A DNA stretch of 46,012 bases, taken from positions 1 through 46,012 of the forward strand of contig JAJQDT010000079.1 in NCBI GenBank assembly GCA_021202075.1, read 5' to 3'. This DNA comes from Lachnospiraceae bacterium (GTDB taxonomy: Bacteria > Bacillota > Clostridia > Lachnospirales > Lachnospiraceae). The first letter of the stretch is position 1. Each line of letters starts with the position of its first letter. Both the position numbers and the translations under genes were made by a program. Below are positions 1,630 through 16,403 of this stretch, one piece after another. The notes beneath the pieces were generated by a model. That model did no database searches. It had not been told where the DNA came from and was given only the letters and a program-made list of their open reading frames with translations.

Positions 1630-3408
1630 TCAACATTCCGCCACAGAATACTGCTTTCTGCACATCATCTGATAACCAGTGACAGTTTCTCTGAATACAT
1701 ATTCACGATACACTCCCTTTACCGGGCTTTTTCTTATTACATGGAAGAAACCGCATCCAAAAATCTGATACATGATCTGCAGGGTATCTGCCTGTATTGG
1801 ATAAATTTTATATTTTCGGTTATCTTCTACTTTTTCAAATTCCATTGTAAAAATCTTCTCAGAACCGATATCCATACGATACTTATTGTAAGCACACTGC
1901 ATATTTTTCCTTCGATTCTGCCATATGGCCGTTACCTGCATTACCGGCTCTCCAACAAGATTCTTTTCGTGCTCTTCCAGCATCCGTATAAAAGATGATG
2001 TTGCTGATAAAGCACAGTTAAACTTTTCAAAATTTAATGCTGTTGTTTCTATGTATGGGAGACCGATGCCCTCCAATTTTGGAAAACACCGTTCTTCTTT
2101 CCGTTTCAAGTACAGCCCTCTGGAGACGACTGCCATTATTCCGCAGAAAAGGATAACGAAAAACACCCTTAAACCAGGCGGAGCTTCATAGTACATACAG
2201 ATATACGGCCATACGAAAACCCATGCTGCGATAACTGCAATGCATATGATAACACCCAAAAGAAACATCCTGTCCTTTTTCACATACGAAGTAATATATT
2301 TTACAGCAGATTTTGATGCCTCCCCGTTTAGTACGAATGCCTTTTCTCCTCCACCTGTTGGCGGGAGAACAGATTCTGTCTTTGACAGAAGGTATTTCAT
2401 TGCCCTGAATGCGTTCTCCGTTGCCATTGCCTGTACGCAATCCTTCACAAGATCATTTGAGTATTGGTCACGTTCCTCGCTCTCAGTTTCAAGCTCGTCC
2501 AGGATTTCCTCCCAGCTGTTTTTAGACGCGCCCCAATCGCAGATTCCCTTTATAATCACACACGGCAAATGGTTTTTCCTGCAGAAATGGTACATCCCAT
2601 ATCCTTCCATCTCACCGCCAGACACATTACATCCTATTCTTGCAGCAGCATCCACAAGGCTCATTTTTATCTGCGGGTCACTGAGGACAATAGGCCCGGA
2701 AAGCATAGGCTCAAAAAACCACTTAAAACTTTGTTTTCCCTCGTCGGCATCGGCAGCCGGAAAATCATTCCCGATTACTAAATGTTCCCATACCGTCACT
2801 AACAGGTCATCGGTCTCATATAAATCCCTGTTTTTCAGTGTGTATTTCATATTGGATATTTTTATGTAATCACCATAAGCGCAGGCTTCTCTCGAAACCA
2901 ATACATCTCCCAGCTCTTGTGTTTTAGAATCTATCCCAAACGCAACCCCAAGGGAAACTACCAGTCTGGGATCAAATATTTTTAATGCCTCCTCCAGAAC
3001 ATCCCTTGAAGCCTTTGGGGAATCTGACCCTGTAGTCCCCTGAATAAAGTGGACAACTGGCGTTTTATGAATCCTGCCCACATTGTATAAATAATGTTCA
3101 GAACCACTCGTAACAAAGGTTTTCATTTCACCTTTTGATTCTTTTGCAAGAAGTCTCGTGACCATATTGGTCTCTACGGGATTCGCCGTGATCAGCAGTA
3201 CGCAATCAGCCTGTATTTCTTTTGAAAATGGTGAAAGGCATGGCTGCACATTTGCCAGCTCTTCCGGAGGCTCTGTAATTTTATCTTTGTAACAAGATAC
3301 CACATTCTTACGTTCTGTCCAGAATTTTTTCAGATTCTCCTGCACATTCTTTTCTTCCTCTACACGCTTCTCTCTGGAGTTATACGGAATTTTCTTTTTC
3401 TCCGGCAT
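1630..3408 (-). CDS. Nucleoside phosphorylase-like domain fused to two membrane helices
   Basis: Residues about 66-345 match the purine/uridine phosphorylase and MTA/SAH nucleosidase superfamily. Visible elements are VVSLGVAFGID near 150, GEMEGYG at 265-271 (the ME motif that binds ribose) and KGICDWG with Asp 291 (the base-contacting Asp). Two membrane helices lie at about 382-402 and 412-430, followed by a cytosolic tail of about 150 residues that I do not recognise. An AGGAGGG site supports this start, although it overlaps the end of the isomerase gene by 29 bases. Housekeeping nucleosidases are about 230 residues and soluble. This architecture resembles phosphorylase domains used as NLR-associated or anti-phage effectors. 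Substrate and trigger are unknown. Confidence 0.8.
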   Translation of the reverse strand: MPEKKKIPYNSREKRVEEEKNVQENLKKFWTERKNVVSCYKDKITEPPEELANVQPCLSPFSKEIQADCVLLITANPVETNMVTRLLAKESKGEMKTFVTSGSEHYLYNVGRIHKTPVVHFIQGTTGSDSPKASRDVLEEALKIFDPRLVVSLGVAFGIDSKTQELGDVLVSREACAYGDYIKISNMKYTLKNRDLYETDDLLVTVWEHLVIGNDFPAADADEGKQSFKWFFEPMLSGPIVLSDPQIKMSLVDAAARIGCNVSGGEMEGYGMYHFCRKNHLPCVIIKGICDWGASKNSWEEILDELETESEERDQYSNDLVKDCVQAMATENAFRAMKYLLSKTESVLPPTGGGEKAFVLNGEASKSAVKYITSYVKKDRMFLLGVIICIAVIAAWVFVWPYICMYYEAPPGLRVFFVILFCGIMAVVSRGLYLKRKEERCFPKLEGIGLPYIETTALNFEKFNCALSATSSFIRMLEEHEKNLVGEPVMQVTAIWQNRRKNMQCAYNKYRMDIGSEKIFTMEFEKVEDNRKYKIYPIQADTLQIMYQIFGCGFFHVIRKSPVKGVYREYVFRETVTGYQMMCRKQYSVAEC

Positions 3409-4000
3409 TTACATCCCTCCTTAAGACCAGCCCTTCGTCTTCCTGCATCTTTTTGCAAACCATGTCAAAAGCTGTGTGAAACCATGCCGTGAAATCAGCC
3501 GGGCTGATTGCTACCCAATCTTTTAAATCCGCAACTGAAATCCACTTTATTTCCGAAATCTCATCCCTGTCAATCATAAGCTCCACCTTCTCTTTCCTGA
3601 TGGGAAGATAAAACACATGGTCTATCTCATATTCCGAGTATCGGCCATAATTATGATAATACCGAAACTTTCCAATTTCAGCGAGACCGTTTATAAGCTC
3701 TGCCTCGTTTCCATAACCGCTATCTGCCAAATCAATGCCAAGTTCTTCACGCATCCTGCGAATCACGGCTTCCCTTAATTCCTCGCCTTTCCTCGGATGT
3801 GAGCAGCAGGAGTTCGTCCATAGGCCGCCGGAATGATATTTACCGTCGGCTCTTCGATGGATCAGCATCTTCTGAACATACCGGTTGTAGATAAAAAGTG
3901 AAAACGCACGATGAAGCTGGCCAAGCTCATGTGTCCTTAATTTCTCCCCATAGCCAATAACATCATCATTCTCATCAACCCACGTCAGCAATTCTTCCAT
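3380..4000 (-). CDS. idi: Type I isopentenyl-diphosphate delta-isomerase (NUDIX)
   Basis: This enzyme interconverts isopentenyl diphosphate and dimethylallyl diphosphate, the primer for prenyl transfer. The sequence shows the family start MEELLTWVDENDDVIG, then HRAFSLFIYN, the metal-site motif TNSCCSHPR with the catalytic Cys, a NUDIX-type REELGI helix, and EYEIDHVFYLP with the catalytic Glu. Length is 206 residues from the ATG at 4000. An in-frame ATG at 4027 exists, but 4000 fits the family start and lies 8 bases after the radical-SAM stop, so the two genes are coupled. Being between a radical-SAM gene and the phosphorylase gene, it probably serves the peptide cluster rather than general isoprenoid supply. 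Confidence 0.9.
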   Translation of the reverse strand: MEELLTWVDENDDVIGYGEKLRTHELGQLHRAFSLFIYNRYVQKMLIHRRADGKYHSGGLWTNSCCSHPRKGEELREAVIRRMREELGIDLADSGYGNEAELINGLAEIGKFRYYHNYGRYSEYEIDHVFYLPIRKEKVELMIDRDEISEIKWISVADLKDWVAISPADFTAWFHTAFDMVCKKMQEDEGLVLRRDVNAGEKENSV

Positions 4001-4007
4001 ACAGATT

Positions 4008-6302
4008 TCACTTTCTCTCTTTGCCATCTAAAATGCGGTTCACAATATCCGGCTTCGTCTGAACCAGCTCAATCAGTGCCGGATACAGGCTTCGGTTAAC
4101 CGCGCATTCTATCTCATCAATCGTAGGTGGCCGCTTCCCGACACTGATAGCCCTGACCGTACATCCGCCACGGCAGAACAGGTACCATTCACAATCCACG
4201 CATACATCCGCTCTCTTCGGGATAAAGAAATCCCTCTCTTGGACGGCATCAGACACCAGAGCAATCAGGTCAGTGCCATCATAAATACAGCCTATGTTTT
4301 CTTCCGGTGTGTCTGTAAGCTCACAGGGATATATCCTTCCTTCCATGTCAAAGGTAATCATCTTACGTCCACCACAGCACCCCTGTGAATGACAGATATC
4401 CGTATACTTTTGATGCAGGATGTTTACCAGCTTTGTCTTCATATTGTACTCTGAAATGCGGTATCCCCGTTCATTCAGCTCCACAATTTTTTGCAAAATA
4501 CGGACAGCCACTTCTGCAATATTCTCCTTGCCAAGACATAAACCGTCACAATTTGAAAACATGCTTTCATGGACGAAGTTAAACTTCACATTCGTCAGAT
4601 GCAGCTGCACGGCAAAATATTCCAAAATATCTTCTATGCCATCCACATTTTTACTTGTTACCGTCGTAATCGTCCCCAGCCGCTCACCATACAGTTGACG
4701 GGCTTGTTGAAGATTCTTCTCAACAATCGTATGTGTCCCCGCCCCTGATTCTGTAATTCTCTGGGCATCATGAAGCACCTTTGTTCCGTCAATGCTGATG
4801 CCAATGCCAATCCTGTTTTCATATAACAGGTTTATGGTTTTTTCATTCAGAAGCAGCCCATTCGTCTCAATACTGAAATGAACTTTTGTGCCTGCCGGAG
4901 CAATCTTTTCTTTCATAAACAGGATTGCATCCAGCTCCAGCAAAGGCTCCCCACCCCAAGGTTGAACAGATACATCCTTCAAATGGTGTTTTTCACAGTA
5001 CCGGACGATATAGTCACAAATATCCTCCAGTGTTTTTTTTGATATAGACCTGTCCTCACCGCTTACATTCCTGAGGCAGTATCTGCATCTCATGTTGCAC
5101 CGGTTTGTCAGATCAATCATGAAAAACTCCGGATAAACCTGTCTAGGACATTCTGTTATGTAAGGCGAGTCTGTTCTATCCGATAATGACGTGTCTGAAA
5201 CCTGCTTTTCTGATACCATTCCATCTAATTCTGACCTGCTTAAAGCCTGCCTGTCGGAATGAGAAGCTTCTCCTGCCGGTACACATGGTATATTTTCAAG
5301 CCCCGGCTGATGACTCGGTATTGGTGATTCTATCTGTCCTTGCAATCGGTCCGATATCTGGCTTTCTGTCTTCCCCCACGAAAAAGGTTTGACAATCTTA
5401 TCCCCAAAATACTGAAACGCTGAATGGTATGTCCCGCTGCAGATGGAATATACCTTGCAGGTCTTACAGGCCTCCCCATCCGCCCCAACATTGTTGGATA
5501 CTTCGGACATATCCTTTTTGTGCGGGTCTTTATATTCGTCATACATCTTCCTCCGGCAGTCCTGGAGATACTCTTTCCAGTAGAAAGCATCACAGGAACA
5601 CAGCGGTATATTTATACAGTACAGTTTTCTTTTTCCGCCCGCCTTTTTCTTTTCGATGTTCCGGTCAAACATCGCTTCGAGATATGGACGGAGTTCCGGG
5701 AAAGAAAGCATTTCCTCTGGCAGCTTTTCTTCGGGTATCCCGCAATAATCAATGCTGCACAGCTGAATATCTACATCCTGCATGAAAGTATCTTCGCAGA
5801 AATCATAGAATGAAACTAAATCCCTGTAATTCACTTTCGTGATGCAGTGTTTCACGATGACGCGGATACCGCTTTCAGAGAGTTTTAACAGTCCGCGCAA
5901 CGTCCTGTGAAAGCTGCCTGCTGTCTGGTTCGCCGCTTCATGCTCTGCGGCTTTCTCACTGTGGATTGTGGTTATAATTTTTATGGAAGACCTGTCCGCA
6001 ATCTCCAGAAAAGCATCTGAAAACCGCTCATCCGCGAAACGCTCACTATTCGTTAGAACAGTCAGTTTCATTCCCTTACTCTGTATGTACTGGACAATCT
6101 CAAGGAAATCCGGATGCATAGTCGGTTCACCACCGGAAACAGTGATTTCCGTTACTCCATCCTCCGCCATGCCATCCACCGCATTCCTAATCTCCGCAAC
6201 AGGTGTAACCATCCGCGCGTTTTTCTCATCTGCAGAGCATGGACAAAACAAGCATTTTTCATTACAGATATAACAGATTGCTAAATATGCACTCTTTCTC
6301 AT
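4008..6302 (-). CDS. Double radical-SAM protein with SPASM-type C-terminus (RiPP maturase)
   Basis: The 764-residue protein carries two complete radical-SAM modules. Module 1 has CxxxCxxC at Cys 13/17/20, SGGEP at 56-60 and extra cysteines (229, 235, 237, 249, 279, 282, 288) that could bind an auxiliary cluster. Module 2 has Cys 402/406/409, GGEP at 450-453 and a SPASM-type set (637, 642/643, 660, 672, 701, 704, 710, 714). A Ser/Asp/Gln-rich linker of about 80 residues (305-390) joins them, as expected for a fusion. SPASM enzymes typically modify ribosomal peptides through carbon-centred cross-links or epimerization. The Trp-rich precursor gene lies directly upstream behind a terminator. Which module acts on which residue cannot be told from sequence. 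Confidence 0.9.
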   Translation of the reverse strand: MRKSAYLAICYICNEKCLFCPCSADEKNARMVTPVAEIRNAVDGMAEDGVTEITVSGGEPTMHPDFLEIVQYIQSKGMKLTVLTNSERFADERFSDAFLEIADRSSIKIITTIHSEKAAEHEAANQTAGSFHRTLRGLLKLSESGIRVIVKHCITKVNYRDLVSFYDFCEDTFMQDVDIQLCSIDYCGIPEEKLPEEMLSFPELRPYLEAMFDRNIEKKKAGGKRKLYCINIPLCSCDAFYWKEYLQDCRRKMYDEYKDPHKKDMSEVSNNVGADGEACKTCKVYSICSGTYHSAFQYFGDKIVKPFSWGKTESQISDRLQGQIESPIPSHQPGLENIPCVPAGEASHSDRQALSRSELDGMVSEKQVSDTSLSDRTDSPYITECPRQVYPEFFMIDLTNRCNMRCRYCLRNVSGEDRSISKKTLEDICDYIVRYCEKHHLKDVSVQPWGGEPLLELDAILFMKEKIAPAGTKVHFSIETNGLLLNEKTINLLYENRIGIGISIDGTKVLHDAQRITESGAGTHTIVEKNLQQARQLYGERLGTITTVTSKNVDGIEDILEYFAVQLHLTNVKFNFVHESMFSNCDGLCLGKENIAEVAVRILQKIVELNERGYRISEYNMKTKLVNILHQKYTDICHSQGCCGGRKMITFDMEGRIYPCELTDTPEENIGCIYDGTDLIALVSDAVQERDFFIPKRADVCVDCEWYLFCRGGCTVRAISVGKRPPTIDEIECAVNRSLYPALIELVQTKPDIVNRILDGKERK

Positions 6303-6335
6303 ATTTCAATACCTACTCCCATCTGCCTGAAAACG

Positions 6336-6390
6336 AAAAAATCCCACAGTACCGCCTCCTCTGTCTTTGCGGAGAATACTGTGGGATCTT
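6336..6390 (-). terminator. Intrinsic terminator between precursor and radical-SAM genes
   Basis: A perfect 11-bp inverted repeat (ATCCCACAGTA at 6341-6351, TACTGTGGGAT at 6377-6387) is followed on the minus strand by a run of T at 6336-6341. A GC-rich pair inside the loop (CCGC/GCGG) would lengthen the stem. It lies 24 bases after the precursor stop. Such a leaky terminator would give much precursor mRNA and less mRNA for the enzymes downstream. Confidence 0.85.
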
Positions 6391-6413
6391 TCTTTTGCGC
6401 AGGCGCTAAAGAT

Positions 6414-6578
6414 TTACCAGCCTGCTCCGCCGTTATCGTTGTTCCAACCACCATGTGTCCATCCTGCCAGAGACGAATTGGTGTCCTCCATGATGATCTG
6501 CATTTCCTGTTCGGAAACGTCTTCCGAAACTTTGACCATGGTTCCGAGTTTTTCAGAATAAACTTCGATTCCTCTCAT
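6414..6578 (-). CDS. Trp/Gly-rich RiPP precursor peptide (54 aa)
   Basis: The gene starts with ATG at 6578 behind an ideal AAAGGAGGT site with 7-base spacing and ends with TAA at 6414. The product begins MRGIEVYSEKLG, continues as an acidic leader-like part, and ends in the core-like segment AGWTHGGWNNDNGGAGW. Three Trp residues (40, 45, 54) each follow Gly, in AGW, GGW and AGW, and the last is the C-terminal residue. Small size, leader/core layout, its own -10 box, a terminator and an adjacent SPASM radical-SAM gene together make a precursor role very likely. W-N-N at 45-47 fits the aromatic-x-Asn pattern of three-residue cyclophane RiPPs. The leader cleavage site is unknown; just before or after NSSLAG is a guess. 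Confidence 0.88.
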   Translation of the reverse strand: MRGIEVYSEKLGTMVKVSEDVSEQEMQIIMEDTNSSLAGWTHGGWNNDNGGAGW

Positions 6579-6609
6579 CGGTTTTACCTCCTTTCGTTAT
6601 GATGGTATC

Positions 6610-6641
6610 ATTATAATTCATTTCAGCATCAATTTATACAA
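6610..6641 (-). promoter_or_regulatory. Putative promoter of the precursor gene
   Basis: A perfect TATAAT lies at 6610-6615 on the minus strand, which would start transcription near 6603, about 25 bases before the precursor ATG. The best -35 candidate, TTGTAT at 6636-6641, has a long 20-base spacing, so the -35 call is weak. The gap 6579-6681 contains nothing else I recognise. Confidence 0.45.
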
Positions 6642-6681
6642 CTACGCTTCCATCACTTCCATGCGAATTTAATGGAGCTGC

Positions 6682-7719
6682 TTACCAATATGCTGAACTA
6701 TTTACAGTTTCAGCCAATGGTGGTGTCTCCTCTGCTGTGGGATGAGTCCAGTATTCATTCGCGTAATTTTGTATGGCGGAGTCATTTCTCCATCGACCAC
6801 CCATGATACCAAACCATAACTGGTAGCAACCGCCCCACTGGATGACTTTCTTTCCTCTTTTTTTCAGCCGAATAGAAAGCGGAAGCCCATAACCGCCACA
6901 GCTGACCAGTGCAATGTCAAATTCCATCTGCATAATTTCCCGTTCCATATATTCTACGGCTTCCATCCATGAGGAGAAACGATCATCAACCGCCCCGCCA
7001 TTCGTCTGTACAGACTGGTAAACATACAAATTAAACTGTGGCAATATCCTGTCAGCATCTTCCCATATAAGATTTCTTTTGGCGTATTGCCTCTTTACAG
7101 ATTCAGCAAAAGATGTCACTACCAGTACTTTCCTGTTTTCAAGGCTTAACTGCCAGTCCGGAAGCTCTGCTTTATGCCAAAACGGGTATGGGTATATGTC
7201 ATTCACTGCAGCATGAGAAACATGGCCTGAATAAAATGGCATAAACACATTATTTTCAGGATAGTTTCTCCAATATGCCATGATATCCGCTTCATCGAGA
7301 TTCTCTATCACATACCGTGCGTAATCGTCCAACACTGCATCATTCTCCGCGATTATCCCGGCATCCATACGGATATGCTCACGGATAAACCTGGAATATG
7401 CATTTCTCACTCCATTTAATTTTTCCAGATATTGATAACAGAGCTGATATTCATACAGTCCAAAACGCAAAAGCAAAAATGGATCATCCGACAAAACAGA
7501 GATCTTCAAAAGTTCCTGTGTCTCTTCTATTCCCGGCAGATGCTTCATGAAATGCTGACTGCGAACGGAAATGTCTGTATTACGAGCCTGTCGAAATGCG
7601 AGATCCACCGAGTTCATGCGGTTATTCCGTAGGATTTTCTTCCTCATGGTGCTATTCTGCATGATGTTGCTTCGCATGATATTACTTCGCATAATATTAC
7701 TCTGCGTGTTTTCTGACAT
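6682..7719 (-). CDS. GT-D-fold (DUF1792-like) glycosyltransferase
   Basis: The 345-residue protein matches the GT-D glycosyltransferase pattern. DPFLLLRFGLYE (about residues 79-90) corresponds to the RFGDGE loop. ALVSCGGYGLPLSIRLKKRGKK and IQWGGCYQLWFGIMGGRW correspond to the SCGGYG and GG-QLxFGIxGxRW motifs, and the C-terminus (WTHPTAEETPP...YW) also fits. In this position it may glycosylate the modified peptide, which is an inference. Its start overlaps the preceding gene by 23 bases. The first residues are four five-residue repeats (QSNIM, RSNIM, RSNIM, QNSTM), each with an in-frame ATG, so the true start is uncertain; 7719 is the most upstream ATG. Confidence 0.75.
   Translation of the reverse strand: MSENTQSNIMRSNIMRSNIMQNSTMRKKILRNNRMNSVDLAFRQARNTDISVRSQHFMKHLPGIEETQELLKISVLSDDPFLLLRFGLYEYQLCYQYLEKLNGVRNAYSRFIREHIRMDAGIIAENDAVLDDYARYVIENLDEADIMAYWRNYPENNVFMPFYSGHVSHAAVNDIYPYPFWHKAELPDWQLSLENRKVLVVTSFAESVKRQYAKRNLIWEDADRILPQFNLYVYQSVQTNGGAVDDRFSSWMEAVEYMEREIMQMEFDIALVSCGGYGLPLSIRLKKRGKKVIQWGGCYQLWFGIMGGRWRNDSAIQNYANEYWTHPTAEETPPLAETVNSSAYW
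7645..7704 (-). repeat. Four 15-bp tandem repeats in the GT-D gene start
   Basis: Four imperfect 15-base units, consensus C(A/G)(A/G)A(G/A)TAAYATYATG, encode QSNIM-RSNIM-RSNIM-QNSTM at the N-terminus of the glycosyltransferase. Each unit ends with an ATG. Units can be gained or lost without breaking the frame. Confidence 0.8.
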
Positions 7720-8656
7720 CCTTGCACCACTCCCACACCTTATTCAGCATATACCTATAAAGGTCACCGCCAACATACCTCTGAAACAATGCAATCTCCT
7801 GTTCAAGCCTCTCGATAAAAATATCAATATTGGCAAATGCCTGCTCTACTCTATCCTGAACACGGATTTCCTCCGGTGCGTCCACACAATAAAACAAAAT
7901 AGAATTCTTTATTTTGCAATTTACGTCTTCCACAAAGTCATCAAGATCATCCGCCAGCCAGAAAATCCGTCCGGCACAGGCTGCGGCCTGCCTTGACCGT
8001 TCAGAATTATGATTGACAGAGGCCAGCAGGAAACAAGCAAACTCAAATTCTACTGACTTATCCGTCAACTTTTCCAATTCGCTCCGGTCAAAAGCTTCTG
8101 CTACTTTCAAGGGACTTTTATACATATAAATTTCCGAAAGGAAAGCCTTGTCCATACTGGTCACAATCATTTCTCTGTCTTCCTGATTCACTTTTGTATC
8201 ATCGGTCAGGAAAATCCGAACATCATTGATCAGTTCGTCCAATTCTGTAAATTCGTCACTTTTATATTCCTTTTCGCTGATAAAGTATTCAACGTGCAGT
8301 TTAGAACAAATCTTCTCCTTTTCATCTGCAGAAAAGCGCGCTGAATCGAGAAAGCGATCCACCAGACAGCAGAACAAAATCAATTTTGTCGCAGCAATAA
8401 GTGCTTCCTTTTTGCAGCCACCACAGAATTCTTCCTGCCAGAGAATAAATTTATTATAATTCGGCACACACCATTTCTGCGCATCGAACTCATACTTTTC
8501 CTGCACCCTGTCCAACAATTCCAGAAGTTCATCAAAAAAGCCATCCGGCATAGGGCGGGCTACAAGTAAATTTTCTTCACAGCCGCGAAAGAGAGCCTTA
8601 TTTTTCATTACAAAATGCTCATTCACATAACCATAATATTCCTTACTGCTCAACAT
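7697..8656 (-). CDS. Class I isoprenoid-synthase-like protein (ComQ-like prenyltransferase candidate)
   Basis: The 319-residue, all-helical product has two Asp-rich sites spaced as in trans-prenyl synthases: LVDRFLD (Asp 100 and 104) in the first position and RIFWLADDLDDFVED (Asp 236, 237, 239, 240, 244) in the second. LTDKSVEFEFACFLLA aligns with the KT-containing helix of that family. The first motif is DxxxD rather than the standard DDxxD, so chain elongation may be altered. ComQ, a degenerate member, prenylates Trp of the ComX peptide. Here a Trp-rich precursor and an IPP isomerase gene lie close by. The start is the ATG at 8656, 8 bases after GAGG; a GTG at 8665 sits within that site. 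A terpene synthase is the main alternative. Confidence 0.6.
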   Translation of the reverse strand: MLSSKEYYGYVNEHFVMKNKALFRGCEENLLVARPMPDGFFDELLELLDRVQEKYEFDAQKWCVPNYNKFILWQEEFCGGCKKEALIAATKLILFCCLVDRFLDSARFSADEKEKICSKLHVEYFISEKEYKSDEFTELDELINDVRIFLTDDTKVNQEDREMIVTSMDKAFLSEIYMYKSPLKVAEAFDRSELEKLTDKSVEFEFACFLLASVNHNSERSRQAAACAGRIFWLADDLDDFVEDVNCKIKNSILFYCVDAPEEIRVQDRVEQAFANIDIFIERLEQEIALFQRYVGGDLYRYMLNKVWEWCKDVRKHAE

Positions 8657-8683
8657 ATTAAACACCTCGCTTGTAGCATACGA

Positions 8684-9862
8684 TTATGGGCTTACCGGAA
8701 AGAATTCCCATGGTTTTACTACTTTACTTTTAACCGCATCTTTCTGATATATCTCCGGTATATACTTTTTATTGACAACTGCCTGCAGAACAAATTTCTG
8801 GAACCATGACGGGGAGACCTTGCATATACCTCCCTTTTCCACGGAAACCGAACTGTTGAATGCCTTATAATATTCCTCATCTGCCGTTGGCGTTTTCAAA
8901 AATACCATCGTATGGGCAAGTCCACCTAAATGATAATTCCACACATCACTCCTGTTTAGCGTTTCGCATCCAACATCTCCGCATATCTGGGCAAGATCAA
9001 AAATTGAATCATCAAACAAATCATATCCCCGTACATAAAATTTCCCGGCATCCGCTGTGAACCAACAGCACCCTTCTCCATCAATCTGTTCATCTATCGC
9101 CTGGCAGAATGTTTCCTCCGGCAGATTCAAAAATTTATTTGGAACACTTCCGGCTACATTACCGTCAAGATCAATGACATATTGTCCTGACTTTATTCTG
9201 ACGTTACTTATGATGCTGATATAATCATCGAAATTATCACCGAAATTCAGCTCAAAATATTCCTGCGGCGTTATAGATCTGCCATTTGGCTGCTCAATTC
9301 TTTCTATCGGAAAGCCATAATAATCCTCTAATAAATTCCGAACTCTATGCATAGCTTCCTCTTTTATCTCGCCCAGCTCTTGCAGGGATGAGCCATTTTC
9401 AAAGCTTTCCCTTATCTTTTTTGCAAAACACCGCAGCATATAGTTCAGGCAGGTGTTCAATTCACCCGTAGGAGCCGGGACAGTAAAGCTGCCATTTTCA
9501 CGGAACGGAACAAGGCCATATTTTCTTATCAGACTGACAGCCATGCCCCACTGTCCCCTGTCACTTACTGGATTGCTCAGGAGATAACGGTTATCCGGGC
9601 TGTCCAGCGGTTCTTCAAGGTGATCCATGAACAATGTGAGAAAGTGATTTGCTTTCTCCAACTTGTCATAAAACATCAGATATTCCAAAGAAAAGCCCTG
9701 CTTTTCTTTCTCTGTCCTTTCCGACAAGAAAAAAAGCGCAGAAACCAGCCAGCAGTAACCTGTCTTTCCCTGTGCAAAAAGCAGTGCCTCCGTCTGTTCT
9801 CTTTCTGGAATACTCGCAGTTTCTTTTAACACAGAATACAAAATGCTTTTTCTTCGCTTCAT
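8684..9862 (-). CDS. PepC/bleomycin-hydrolase-like cysteine peptidase
   Basis: Papain-like family C1B aminopeptidases are soluble cytoplasmic enzymes. The triad is visible: Cys 37 in GKTGYCWLVSAL, His 317 in GGLAHTMVF and Asn 336 in KAFNSSVS. DRGQWGMAVSLIRKYGLVPF is a strong PepC signature, and CWFTADAGKF and the C-terminal PWEFFP also fit. Length is 392 residues against about 440 for PepC. The usual ENSWG is NSSVS here, so activity or specificity may differ. The start is the ATG at 9862 behind GAGG, rather than the GTG at 9877. The next gene begins 27 bases downstream. In this operon it could remove the leader from the modified peptide. Confidence 0.85.
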   Translation of the reverse strand: MKRRKSILYSVLKETASIPEREQTEALLFAQGKTGYCWLVSALFFLSERTEKEKQGFSLEYLMFYDKLEKANHFLTLFMDHLEEPLDSPDNRYLLSNPVSDRGQWGMAVSLIRKYGLVPFRENGSFTVPAPTGELNTCLNYMLRCFAKKIRESFENGSSLQELGEIKEEAMHRVRNLLEDYYGFPIERIEQPNGRSITPQEYFELNFGDNFDDYISIISNVRIKSGQYVIDLDGNVAGSVPNKFLNLPEETFCQAIDEQIDGEGCCWFTADAGKFYVRGYDLFDDSIFDLAQICGDVGCETLNRSDVWNYHLGGLAHTMVFLKTPTADEEYYKAFNSSVSVEKGGICKVSPSWFQKFVLQAVVNKKYIPEIYQKDAVKSKVVKPWEFFPVSP

Positions 9863-9929
9863 TTTCTCACACCTCATATAAAAATATAAAATTGAGTTAT
9901 TGGTAACATTCTCCTAAACTGTTTCAGCA

Positions 9930-11117
9930 TTACAGATTTTCCGCAAAAAATGAATATTTATCATCCTTCCACATTTCATTGAAAACGCCCTCAAAATGGC
10001 GGAACAAATCCGGTGTCATTTTTCTGAAAACATACATACATGGACGTTCACTATTGTCGCTGATAAATGGAGAATACAAATCCAATTTAATGTAATCCAT
10101 GTTTGAATCTTCAAATTTCAAAATAAACAGGGAATATGGAACTGACTTGTCTGTCACTTTCAATGCTATTTTGTTGTCAGGGATTGCGTTCATCATGTCC
10201 GTGATAATATGAATTGAAGTCTCAGATAACTCTACCTTCGGACGTTTAAGATGTGGCATATTTACCTGATAATTACAGGCGTCCACGTTCGCGCGGCATC
10301 CGGGCTTTGAAAGAATAATTTCAACAGATAACTTTCTGTTCTCCGTTAACAATTTTTCAAATTCTTTATCATCGCCGTTCTCCTGCATGGAAACCGCTGT
10401 TTCACTAAAAAGAGAAATACCATCCAAACATAATATTCGGACTTCTTCTGCTCTTCCAAGTCTTTGATATAAATCTGATTTTTCTTCATCAAAGTCTTTC
10501 CGGAAACCTAACACGACATTTAAATCAGTATTCAGGCATGGACTTAATCCAAGTTTCCGCGATAGTGAATCAAGCGTATCCGAATTGACATTTGGCAGCT
10601 TGTGTTCTTCGCTGACAATATAATACAGCAACTTGGCCAGTACAGCTTTTACCGTCCCGTGTTCCAGATCCGTCAATAATTCTTTTTTTACCGACGCAGG
10701 AACCTTTACATTCCGTTTCAGGAAAAGTGGATTCTTCTGTAAAACTATTCTTAAGTCTTCCTTCATATATGGAGATTCAATATCAGGAGAAACGTTTTCA
10801 CGAACATTGAAATATGTGAGTTTTACCTCATCATAAGTGCATAATCTCTGATAAAAATACTCAGCATTGATATCTGGTTCATGAAATGCCTGATTACCAA
10901 AACCCTGCTGGGCATAATTATTGACAATCCCATGTTTGTTTTCTTTTAAATTATGTATCTTCTCCTCAATTTCCGAATCCAGATATGGCCTGGATTTTCC
11001 AAATGCGATAAATGGGAGAAAATATGCCGCAAAAATGACAGGTTTTGAGTAATAACTAAAATAACCTGTTCCAAACAGACGGGTAAGAATATATGCACTA
11101 TCTTCATTTTTAATCAC
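9930..11117 (-). CDS. Unknown protein upstream of the RiPP enzymes
   Basis: I do not recognise this 395-residue protein. It has an N-terminal aromatic and hydrophobic part, a charged helical middle and a mixed alpha/beta C-terminal half (EEVRILCLDGISLFSETA ... VEIILSKPGC ... MYVFRKMTPDLFRHFEGVFNEMW). The pattern of a signalling loop, predicted strands and a final W recalls phospholipase-D-like sensor domains seen in effector systems, without clear HKD motifs. The start is a GTG at 11117 placed 9 bases after AGGAGG. It lies 67 bases upstream of the peptidase gene and is probably the first gene of the peptide cluster, possibly for regulation, immunity or recognition. Confidence 0.55.
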   Translation of the reverse strand: MIKNEDSAYILTRLFGTGYFSYYSKPVIFAAYFLPFIAFGKSRPYLDSEIEEKIHNLKENKHGIVNNYAQQGFGNQAFHEPDINAEYFYQRLCTYDEVKLTYFNVRENVSPDIESPYMKEDLRIVLQKNPLFLKRNVKVPASVKKELLTDLEHGTVKAVLAKLLYYIVSEEHKLPNVNSDTLDSLSRKLGLSPCLNTDLNVVLGFRKDFDEEKSDLYQRLGRAEEVRILCLDGISLFSETAVSMQENGDDKEFEKLLTENRKLSVEIILSKPGCRANVDACNYQVNMPHLKRPKVELSETSIHIITDMMNAIPDNKIALKVTDKSVPYSLFILKFEDSNMDYIKLDLYSPFISDNSERPCMYVFRKMTPDLFRHFEGVFNEMWKDDKYSFFAENL

Positions 11118-13655: not shown

Positions 13656-16403
13656 TTAAAAATTCCAAATAACTTTCCTTTGAATTTTCCCATTTTCTTT
13701 TGTTTTGGACAATGTCAATGCCTGCCTTGTTCCTACAAGCGGAAACATACACTGTATTTTCGGTTCCCCAGTTTTTACACGGTCTTTCAGATGAGTTAAC
13801 ACATTTAACATATCCTCCCCCTGTTTTCGAAATTTTTTATATTGCCTTGTCAATTCAGGCAGAGAAATCTGATTAAATCCAATAAGATTCTGCGGTTGTT
13901 TTTCATAGTATTTCAAAACTTCAAGCGTAGTACTGTTTTTTACCCGTATGGTATGATTATTGTTTTTTAGCATGTAATCACTGCATGACTCAGCTAACAG
14001 CAACAATTCGTTCGCCATTGCTATCCTAGCACTTTTCTCTACCTTTTCTGACACCAAATCATTCCAGCAAAAAACTCTGTCTCCATTTTTCCCCTTATAA
14101 GAGAAAATAATATATGAGAAAAGATCATCCACAATATCGTAGATGGCTCTGGCAACGTTGAAAGATTGCTGACTTGTACTAATCATATTTAAAAGTTGAA
14201 AAATCTGACACAACTCCATCCCTAATTTATATTCACACCTTTCAAACATCGGAATATCAACTTCCCTTATATGAAGCGACCTGTTTTCATCAATCTGAAA
14301 GAGCATAGGAACAAGTTCAAATGGTACTTGCAATTTTGAGAACCATATATTTTCTAATCCGCACAGACTTGTAATATCTGAATAATTAACCGACATAAGG
14401 AAAAAAGGATCCTTATTAGCAGACATAATATCCGAATACTGTGCCTCAATATCTTCATTATCAGTCGGATTCAAAAATAATCGTTTCAATGTACGACACT
14501 TAAAATGATATACGCAACGATACTTCTGTAAAGAACCAAAGACCTGTTCTGCGTCTGGTTGCAGCGGATTATCACTGACATCCAGATAACTCAAGCTTAA
14601 TGTTGCCACAAAATCAAGATCGGACAATTCATTATTGGCCACTATCAAAATACGTAATGATGCAGGCAGAATTTCCCGTATGTCCTCTGAGGTCAAAGCA
14701 CAATTAGAGACATTAAGATACTCCAGAGAGTGGCAATTCTTTAAATCCGAAAGCATCACATGCTGATTTCCAACACAAATCAGTTTTTTCAACTGTGGAA
14801 AGTACTTTAAAAACGATAAATTTTGAACACCCATATGAGAGATATTTAGCGAACTAACAGGAAAGCCCGCAAACCATTCCAGATCAACACAATTCAATGA
14901 TCGCATTCTTCTGTTGATATTACATAATCTAATATTTTTATTCCAGACCAAGCATCTAAATTCTGAGCAGTCTATCTTAAATCTTCCAAGCTGAAACTTT
15001 ACATAAAATAGTCCTGTCAAAAAGATCCTAAAATGCTTATTAAGCAAATCTTTCGAAGAGTTAATATGAATCTCCAGAATTTCCCCAGTTTCCGCCGGTT
15101 GTAAATCTGAAAGTTTCTTCATGCCAGTTCCCAACAAAATAATGTCTGTCTCTGGGAATGCTGCCGAAAACACCTTGCGATAATGATATTCTCCGAAAAA
15201 CAGCTTCACGCCGCGTGAGAAAACAATTTTAGAACTGTTTTTAGACAAACACAATTTTTTATAATGCATCCGGACATAATTAAATTCAAAAAAGGAAGAA
15301 TGAATACAGGCATAGCCCCTCCCCTCTTCATATACCAGTAAAGAACGACTTCCTACGATGTCGCCATATACTCGGTCTTTCGCATTTATAACTTCGTCTG
15401 GTTTAAAAAAAACTTCTGCGATTCCCTGTTGCTTCCTGATGAAATATAATTCCGTCATCCTGTCAAACACTTTTTTTAAATCAGCCTTTTCCAGAATTTT
15501 TCCTTCTTCATCAGCCTTATTGCGTTCTCTTTGGAACCAGCCTGTCAAAATCCTTTCATATATCTCATACAAATTCATATCAGGGTTCGTCACCTGATAA
15601 TCCTCCGACAAGCTTGTAAGAAATCGCAAAAACAGTGGACGTGAAAGTACTTCCTCTGAAGCTGAAACCATTTTCAGACATTTTTTCACCTCATCTGCTC
15701 CAACATGCATTTTGTGCCGCAGATATTTTTGAATCTGCCTTTGATTCAATCCATTTATTGCAATCTTGACAATGGGCTGCACTTCATTTCCTGCCAATCG
15801 AAATGCCAGATGTTCAAAGTGCTCTCTATTCTGCATGTAAAAAGCATTTCTAACAGAGATAACAACACGGCCATACTTTTTTAATGAACACTGCAAATCA
15901 GAAAAAATGGCAAGCAGTTCCTTCCCTGTTTGTGCTTTCAGAAAGTCCTCATATTCATCCAATCCGTCTAAAAACAAGATTTGTTCTGATAACTCTTTAT
16001 CGCCGGACAGTTCCTTAAAGTCGTGCAATGAAACAGCGTTTACATATTTCATCTTATGCCTTCGACCATTTTTAATAATCAGAGTATGACACACCTTTTG
16101 CATCAAAAAAGATTTTCCTGCGCCACTCTCACCGGTTATCAGAATAAGTCTCGGACCATTTTTCTTCTGAAGCAGCTTTACAATAAACCTGTCTGCGTTC
16201 CGGCTGCACCTCCCCGAACAACCTGTTGCTGCATACTGTAGAGGCAGATATTCTTTTATCCGATTTGAAAACGGCAACTTCCAAAATTCATAAAAGATTT
16301 CTGTACGTCGTTTGTATAATGCACCCAGCAAAGCCCCCAAACCAGAAAATAATGTCACAAGCGCAGATGATATTTCAATAATGAGGATAATATTTTCCGC
16401 CAT
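13656..16403 (-). CDS. Membrane-anchored NACHT-type STAND ATPase with leucine-rich repeats
   Basis: The 915-residue protein has an N-terminal membrane helix (about residues 5-28). The P-loop is GESGAGKS (91-98), Walker B is ILFLDGLDE (142-150), and a winged-helix region follows. Leucine-rich repeats lie at about 505-660, for example SLEYLNVSNCALT and SLSYLDVSDNPL. The C-terminal part (about 750-915) is unassigned. This is the architecture of bacterial NLR-like proteins, many of which sense phage components through the repeats. The effector here may be the membrane segment itself or a neighbour. AAAAAGG lies before the ATG, and a 388-base gap upstream suggests its own promoter. Confidence 0.85.
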   Translation of the reverse strand: MAENIILIIEISSALVTLFSGLGALLGALYKRRTEIFYEFWKLPFSNRIKEYLPLQYAATGCSGRCSRNADRFIVKLLQKKNGPRLILITGESGAGKSFLMQKVCHTLIIKNGRRHKMKYVNAVSLHDFKELSGDKELSEQILFLDGLDEYEDFLKAQTGKELLAIFSDLQCSLKKYGRVVISVRNAFYMQNREHFEHLAFRLAGNEVQPIVKIAINGLNQRQIQKYLRHKMHVGADEVKKCLKMVSASEEVLSRPLFLRFLTSLSEDYQVTNPDMNLYEIYERILTGWFQRERNKADEEGKILEKADLKKVFDRMTELYFIRKQQGIAEVFFKPDEVINAKDRVYGDIVGSRSLLVYEEGRGYACIHSSFFEFNYVRMHYKKLCLSKNSSKIVFSRGVKLFFGEYHYRKVFSAAFPETDIILLGTGMKKLSDLQPAETGEILEIHINSSKDLLNKHFRIFLTGLFYVKFQLGRFKIDCSEFRCLVWNKNIRLCNINRRMRSLNCVDLEWFAGFPVSSLNISHMGVQNLSFLKYFPQLKKLICVGNQHVMLSDLKNCHSLEYLNVSNCALTSEDIREILPASLRILIVANNELSDLDFVATLSLSYLDVSDNPLQPDAEQVFGSLQKYRCVYHFKCRTLKRLFLNPTDNEDIEAQYSDIMSANKDPFFLMSVNYSDITSLCGLENIWFSKLQVPFELVPMLFQIDENRSLHIREVDIPMFERCEYKLGMELCQIFQLLNMISTSQQSFNVARAIYDIVDDLFSYIIFSYKGKNGDRVFCWNDLVSEKVEKSARIAMANELLLLAESCSDYMLKNNNHTIRVKNSTTLEVLKYYEKQPQNLIGFNQISLPELTRQYKKFRKQGEDMLNVLTHLKDRVKTGEPKIQCMFPLVGTRQALTLSKTKENGKIQRKVIWNF

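What the first reader, a model, noticed from the sequence alone, without database searches (positions are those of the whole stretch)
3380..11117. Apparently undescribed RiPP cluster built around a small Trp/Gly-rich peptide
Seen: a 54-codon gene (6414-6578) with an ideal ribosome site encodes a peptide ending AGWTHGGWNNDNGGAGW. Next to it on the same strand are a double radical-SAM/SPASM gene, GT-D glycosyltransferase, isoprenoid-synthase-like, PepC-like peptidase and IPP isomerase genes. Known: SPASM radical-SAM enzymes beside short precursor genes mark RiPP pathways. Inference: the combination of radical-SAM, prenyl and glycosyl chemistry on one peptide matches no RiPP class I know.
Basis: partly seen in the sequence, partly recalled or inferred. 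Interest (0 to 1): 0.92.

Follow-up and report, generated by a model that had tools for sequence, protein, structure and literature searches.

The report
Tryptophan-stapled, prenylated peptide gene cluster
A bacterial gene cluster encodes a conserved 54-residue peptide beside a fused pair of radical-SAM enzymes, a protein predicted to have a terpene-synthase-like fold and a predicted isoprenoid isomerase, which together would likely staple the peptide's tryptophans into rings and attach an isoprenoid, a combination not found in the papers searched.

The parts
6414..6578 (-). precursor peptide gene, 54 codons; leader with EVYSEKLG, core GWTHGGWNNDNGGAGW
6587..6592 (-). ribosome-binding site AGGAGG, 8 nt before the ATG
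   Evidence: sequence
6336..6392 (-). terminator-like hairpin followed by a U tract, between precursor and radical-SAM gene
   Evidence: z -5.3; similar hairpins in L035, L036, L064; not found by the simple scan, which allows loops of 3-8 only
5328..6302 (-). N-terminal half of the radical-SAM fusion (approximate limit): HxsC-like, CxxxCxxC plus PLC...CxxCx5C
4008..5147 (-). C-terminal half of the fusion (approximate limit): radical-SAM/SPASM, HxsB/PapB/DynA-like; the N-terminal ~85-residue domain of its relatives is missing here
7697..8665 (-). protein of predicted isoprenoid-synthase fold, candidate Trp prenyltransferase; D103-xxx-D107 and D239-D240-L-x-D243
3380..4027 (-). predicted type 1 IPP isomerase (NUDIX), with TNSCCSHP and EYEIDHV motifs
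   Evidence: meaning of the motifs recalled
8684..9877 (-). C1-family (PepC/bleomycin-hydrolase-like) peptidase with conserved Cys and His; role in leader or core processing inferred
6682..7719 (-). GT-D-like protein, possible glycosyltransferase; not found in L034
9930..11117 (-). operon gene of unknown function, also in L035, L036, L064
   Evidence: no family

Best explanation
This is very likely a RiPP gene cluster in which a fused pair of radical-SAM enzymes would form three-residue rings at Trp40-x-His42 and Trp45-x-Asn47 of a 54-residue precursor, and a protein with a predicted isoprenoid-synthase fold, fed by the operon's own predicted IPP isomerase, would prenylate the C-terminal Trp54. 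Shown by sequence: the conserved precursor, the W-x-x-x-G/Y-W-x-N module across the family, the fused radical-SAM protein with its cysteine sets, and precursor, radical-SAM, isoprenoid-fold and peptidase genes together in five loci. Predicted from fold or profile: the isoprenoid-synthase fold, the IPP isomerase, the C1 peptidase. Inferred: the ring chemistry (by analogy with triceptides), prenylation of Trp54 (by analogy with PalQ and ComQ), leader removal by the peptidase, and glycosylation by the GT-D-like protein.
Against: No product or enzyme assay exists. The radical-SAM halves score far below the cut-offs of the known cyclophane families shown. His as third residue after Trp was not among the linkages in the passage read. 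The isoprenoid enzyme has no Pfam terpenoid hit in 11 of 11 members, its first motif is D-K/R-x-x-D, not DDxxD, and its nearest solved folds are terpene cyclases. The five loci with it are near relatives, so their shared terminal Trp may reflect one ancestor; with the dropped variant-core loci put back the others are 4 of 19. L034 has the isoprenoid enzyme but no IPP isomerase in the stretch held. PalQ stayed active without its second aspartate pair, and ComQ lacks it, so that pair is weak evidence. The window's fusion lacks the ~90-aa partner and the N-terminal domain found in most relatives, so leader recognition is unexplained.
Confidence: 0.5

Rival explanations
1. The cluster is a RiPP pathway, but the radical-SAM pair installs another change (for example a Trp-Trp link as in darobactin, epimerisation or oxidation) and not two three-residue cyclophanes.
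For: Best profile hits of the SPASM half are PapB, DynA, HxsB and sulfatase maturases, below cut-off; two enzymes of different type act beside a two-Trp module of fixed spacing, which would also suit one ring spanning both Trp. Darobactin has a Trp-Trp ether (abstract of PMC9055067 in the listing).
Against: Asn at i+2 of the second Trp in 36 of 45 copies and mostly Asn, His or Asp at i+2 of the first fit two i,i+2 rings.
Confidence: 0.35
2. The isoprenoid-fold protein and the IPP isomerase make a free terpenoid, or the fold serves only to bind the peptide, so the peptide is not prenylated.
For: Best structural matches are terpene cyclases; first motif degenerate; no Pfam terpenoid match.
Against: Second motif is DDLxD, the prenyltransferase type (recalled), not a cyclase triad; terminal Trp tracks the enzyme; no cytochrome P450 or other terpenoid family among the hits of the ten proteins scanned, apart from the isomerase.
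Confidence: 0.3
3. The modified peptide is the signal or effector of an NTPase-centred conflict system, not a secreted natural product.
For: nSTAND3/NACHT-LRR gene 13656-16403 upstream, over Pfam cut-offs; PNP-superfamily effector-like gene 1630-3408 overlapping the IPP isomerase gene by 29 bp; an nSTAND-like gene (below cut-offs) directly upstream in L036 and an NB-ARC-TPR gene near in L043; precedent for radical-SAM-modified peptides beside AP-ATPases in PMC7159879 (passages); no transporter family among the hits of the ten proteins scanned.
Against: The 49,385-base record of L064, which holds the full operon, has no nSTAND3 match. nSTAND3 matches are common: 14 of 14 control genomes, 7 over the cut-off. 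Neighbours of L034 and L035 were not scanned for families, so the link rests on three loci.
Confidence: 0.25
4. The cluster is decayed: the fusion arose by deletion and the peptide is no longer modified.
For: Both the ~90-aa partner and the N-terminal domain of the SPASM half are missing.
Confidence: 0.05

Closest known systems
Triceptides (XncB, OscB/GrrM, MscB, YhhB)
   Same: SPASM radical-SAM enzyme, short precursor, aromatic-x-Asn motifs
   Different: two radical-SAM proteins of different type; fixed two-Trp module; profile scores far below cut-off; prenyl module
His-Xaa-Ser (Hxs) system
   Same: HxsC-like and HxsB-like radical-SAM pair side by side
   Different: no His-Xaa-Ser repeats in the window's precursor; the fusion scores 127.7 against a cut-off of 267.9 (HxsC) and 139.6 against 370 (HxsB)
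PalQ/PalX and ComQ/ComX
   Same: isoprenoid-synthase-fold enzyme beside a small precursor with a C-terminal (PalX) or internal (ComX) Trp
   Different: the PalX cluster of the paper has three genes and no radical-SAM partner; no Pfam terpenoid match here; the window's operon carries its own predicted IPP isomerase
FxSxx-COOH/FxsB peptide-processing systems
   Same: radical-SAM-modified peptide near a STAND-type NTPase
   Different: no FxSxx terminus; no zincin peptidase among the ten proteins scanned; different radical-SAM pair

Membership tests
Triceptide | SPASM radical-SAM enzyme encoded beside the precursor | tested here: met
Triceptide | aromatic-x-x motif with Asn/Asp/Arg-type third residue | tested here: met
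   second site Asn in 36 of 45 copies with that position free and in the window; the window's first site has His, which the passage read does not list after Trp
Triceptide | enzyme belongs to a recognised cyclophane-former family (GrrM/OscB, YhhB, AmcB, FxsB) | tested here: not met
   matches shown are far below curated cut-offs (best 25 families shown per protein)
Triceptide | C-C bond between aromatic ring and C-beta of residue i+2 | not testable with these tools
   needs NMR
Hxs system | His-Xaa-Ser repeats in the precursor | tested here: not met
   absent in P0001
Hxs system | HxsB and HxsC at or above equivalog cut-off | tested here: not met
Sactipeptide/ranthipeptide | Cys in the core for a thioether | tested here: not met
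   no Cys in P0001; of the five loci of the sub-type L036 alone has a core Cys
PalQ/ComQ peptide prenylation | isoprenoid-synthase fold | tested here: met
PalQ/ComQ peptide prenylation | first aspartate motif (second present in PalQ, absent in ComQ) | tested here: met
   D103/D107 and D239/D240/D243 invariant in 11; first motif has K/R at its second place
PalQ/ComQ peptide prenylation | prenyl transfer to Trp of the partner peptide | not testable with these tools
   needs assay
PalQ/PalX | NHLP-type leader | tested here: not met
   no such Pfam match for P0001
GT-D glycosyltransferase | match to the GT-D-like profile at cut-off | tested here: inconclusive
   window 25.9 bits against 27; 3 of 3 members match at E 0.01 or better, best 2.8e-07
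Type 1 IPP isomerase | equivalog profile cut-off | tested here: met
   106.8 against 105.8 and 130.9 against 127 bits, narrow
FxSxx/FxsB systems | FxSxx C-terminus | tested here: not met

The most novel reading that the evidence does not exclude
A new RiPP class, found in at least two bacterial phyla and one archaeal bin, built on a paired radical-SAM machine that writes two adjacent Trp-based rings into a W-x-x-x-G-W-x-N module; in the window's branch the pair is fused, and the peptide is further prenylated on its C-terminal Trp by a previously unseen isoprenoid-synthase family with a dedicated IPP isomerase and is glycosylated by a GT-D enzyme, giving the first stapled lipoglycopeptide RiPP, possibly the signal of a STAND-NTPase conflict system.
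Probability: 0.25. Interest if true: 0.93.

Novelty: new variant of a known kind. Interest (0 to 1): 0.78.

Why it matters
It would add a RiPP class with two cooperating radical-SAM enzymes of different type and a self-contained 8-residue target module, useful for engineering stapled peptides. It would also be a case of Trp prenylation by an enzyme family without Pfam assignment, in bacteria whose named relatives are Lachnospiraceae and Ruminococcus. The window's operon has seven core genes and is directly testable by co-expression and mass spectrometry.

Tried and rejected
Rejected: thioether RiPP (no Cys in the precursor); Hxs membership; random ORF; a plasmid home (no match of the fusion at E 1e-30 among 72,556 plasmid records) and a close phage match (megablast of 9571 bases, none). 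The first genome-contig scan with the single sequence confirmed no relative; the alignment found 30 loci. A precursor scan of viral contigs confirmed none. PDB sequence searches gave nothing significant: isoprenoid protein none at E 1 and best E 0.6 as a profile, unknown gene best E 0.39, GT-D-like none. The simple terminator scan found no site; RNA folding showed the hairpin. The ~90-aa partner gave only chance-level NCBIfam matches. The output was cut; its question was asked again more narrowly.

Rows dropped before counts: L061's 34-aa pattern ORF (chance); from the terminal-Trp table L054 (its ORF runs on to 209 aa) and the variant cores L041 (ends Trp), L059 and L061 (do not). L005 and L053 are the same locus and L047-L051 one family, each counted once in that table but singly elsewhere. 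Loci without a module ORF: L041, L042, L043, L052, L058, L059, L061, L069 (8 of 34; L042, L043, L052 and L058 on short or cut stretches). The ~90-aa-partner profile was built from ten of the sequences it then found.

Full report
Observation. The 54-codon ORF at 6414-6578 (-) is real and encodes MRGIEVYSEKLGTMVKVSEDVSEQEMQIIMEDTNSSLAGWTHGGWNNDNGGAGW. It has AGGAGG eight bases before its ATG. Of 13 proteins found with it, 12 are other sequences, at 61-87% identity. In the last 18 codons, L034, L035, L036 and L064 differ from the window by 8, 10, 6 and 5 synonymous and 2, 3, 2 and 6 non-synonymous codons. Five of the 12 homologues (P0002, P0003, P0005, P0006, P0013) have the same longest-contig length as a radical-SAM hit among the 120 listed of 534, which suggests that they lie on the same contigs. 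The window lies in an assembly of 173 contigs, 95.13% complete, 5.46% contaminated, so its host is not certain; a same-genus genome holds a locus (L005) whose radical-SAM pair and precursor look the same as those of a record titled Lachnospiraceae (L053).

The wider family. The fused radical-SAM protein corresponds, in most relatives, to a ~310-aa HxsC-like protein and a ~460-aa SPASM protein in separate genes. A profile scan of reference genomes gave 30 loci; with L005, L064, L069 and the window I examined 34. Record titles name Lachnospiraceae, Ruminococcus bromii, Blautia, Eisenbergiella, Bacteroidales, Endomicrobiellum and a Methanomethylophilaceae archaeon, among others (bins may be mixed). 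A ~90-aa protein with an LSPYT-like motif stands beside the start of the SPASM gene in 29 of 34 loci (the profile was built from ten of them); a profile of the ~85-residue N-terminal domain of the SPASM protein matches in 31 of 34. The window has neither.

The target module. Most precursors share a V/I-F/Y-S-E/K/Q-K leader (not L060 or L061) and a W-x-x-x-G/Y-W-x-N module, single or in up to five repeats. The pattern W...[GY]W.[NKR] is in a candidate precursor in 26 of 34 loci. Among 4536 ORFs of 25-150 aa it occurs in 27, against 0.99 expected by shuffling; shuffling only the second half of those 27 leaves it in 2.3 on average. That pattern limits position 8 to N, K or R; with position 8 free and G at position 5, Asn is there in 36 of 45 copies. 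The two W-x-x sites resemble triceptide sites, where radical-SAM enzymes bond Trp to the C-beta of residue i+2 (PMC11002830, passages). Hence the inference of two rings by two enzymes. Known families score far below cut-off.

Regulation. A terminator-like hairpin follows the precursor gene in the window (z -5.3), L035, L036 and L064 (z -5.8, -3.0, -4.6); L034 has a hairpin without a U tract after it (z -4.5). This would favour more precursor than enzyme transcript (inference).

Distribution. At E 1e-50 the SPASM profile hits 3 of 397 genomes of the same family, the window's own included, and 1 of 391 of the class, the window's own; the two sets share some genomes. The trait is rare and patchy, which suggests horizontal transfer (inference). 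L064 comes from a viral-contig collection, and its stretch has an integrase gene at its edge.

Neighbourhood. Upstream lies an nSTAND3/NACHT-LRR gene, downstream a PNP-type effector-like gene overlapping the isomerase gene. L036 has an nSTAND-like gene, below the Pfam cut-offs, directly upstream, and L043 an NB-ARC gene; the record of L064 has no nSTAND3 match. Radical-SAM-modified peptides beside AP-ATPases have been proposed as toxins or signals in conflict systems (PMC7159879, passages). I hold this as a rival reading of the role, not of the chemistry.

Literature. Ten searches over open-licence PubMed Central listed no description of this gene set, judged from titles and abstract starts; I saw passages of PMC9062424 and PMC10352776 as well. 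Most subscription papers are not held, among them the radical-SAM RiPP atlas cited in the reference list of PMC10352776, so an entry there cannot be excluded.

Verdict. RiPP biosynthesis: about 0.93. Rings at the two W-x-x sites: about 0.55. Prenylation of Trp54: about 0.5. Glycosylation of the peptide: about 0.3.

Noticed in passing
window 13656-16403 (-) and 1630-3408 (-): nSTAND3/NACHT-LRR protein with an N-terminal hydrophobic stretch, and a PNP-superfamily effector-like protein overlapping the IPP isomerase gene by 29 bp: a possible conflict system around the peptide operon.
   Followed up: partly
L064:10929-11162 (+): a second precursor-like ORF ending LGWAHAGWINHGSGGDSW in the same cluster, also with a terminal Trp.
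   Followed up: no
L035:2733-3632, L064:3538-4449: a further radical-SAM gene between the peptidase and isoprenoid genes (in L035 just below the Pfam cut-off), absent in the window.
   Followed up: partly
L038:14455-16602: a stretch with a radical-SAM-like CxxxCxxC motif joined to the C1 peptidase in one 715-aa ORF.
   Followed up: no
L060:7896-10202: archaeal bin with the two radical-SAM proteins fused in the opposite order to the window, apparently an independent fusion.
   Followed up: no
L063:9983-11326: a further SPASM gene closest to the FibroRumin maturase (288 bits, cut-off 400); similarly placed genes in other Bacteroidales loci were not scanned.
   Followed up: no
L059:3957-4247, L061:9358-9510, L041:6843-7043: variant precursor-like cores (YWSNSTxWSAGG repeats; WTAWDAW; WNHWDNWDHCNW) beside the same enzyme pair.
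   Followed up: no
window 16792-45620 (-): a long run of polysaccharide-type genes on the same strand (flippase, sugar transferase, epimerases, cytidylyltransferase).
   Followed up: no
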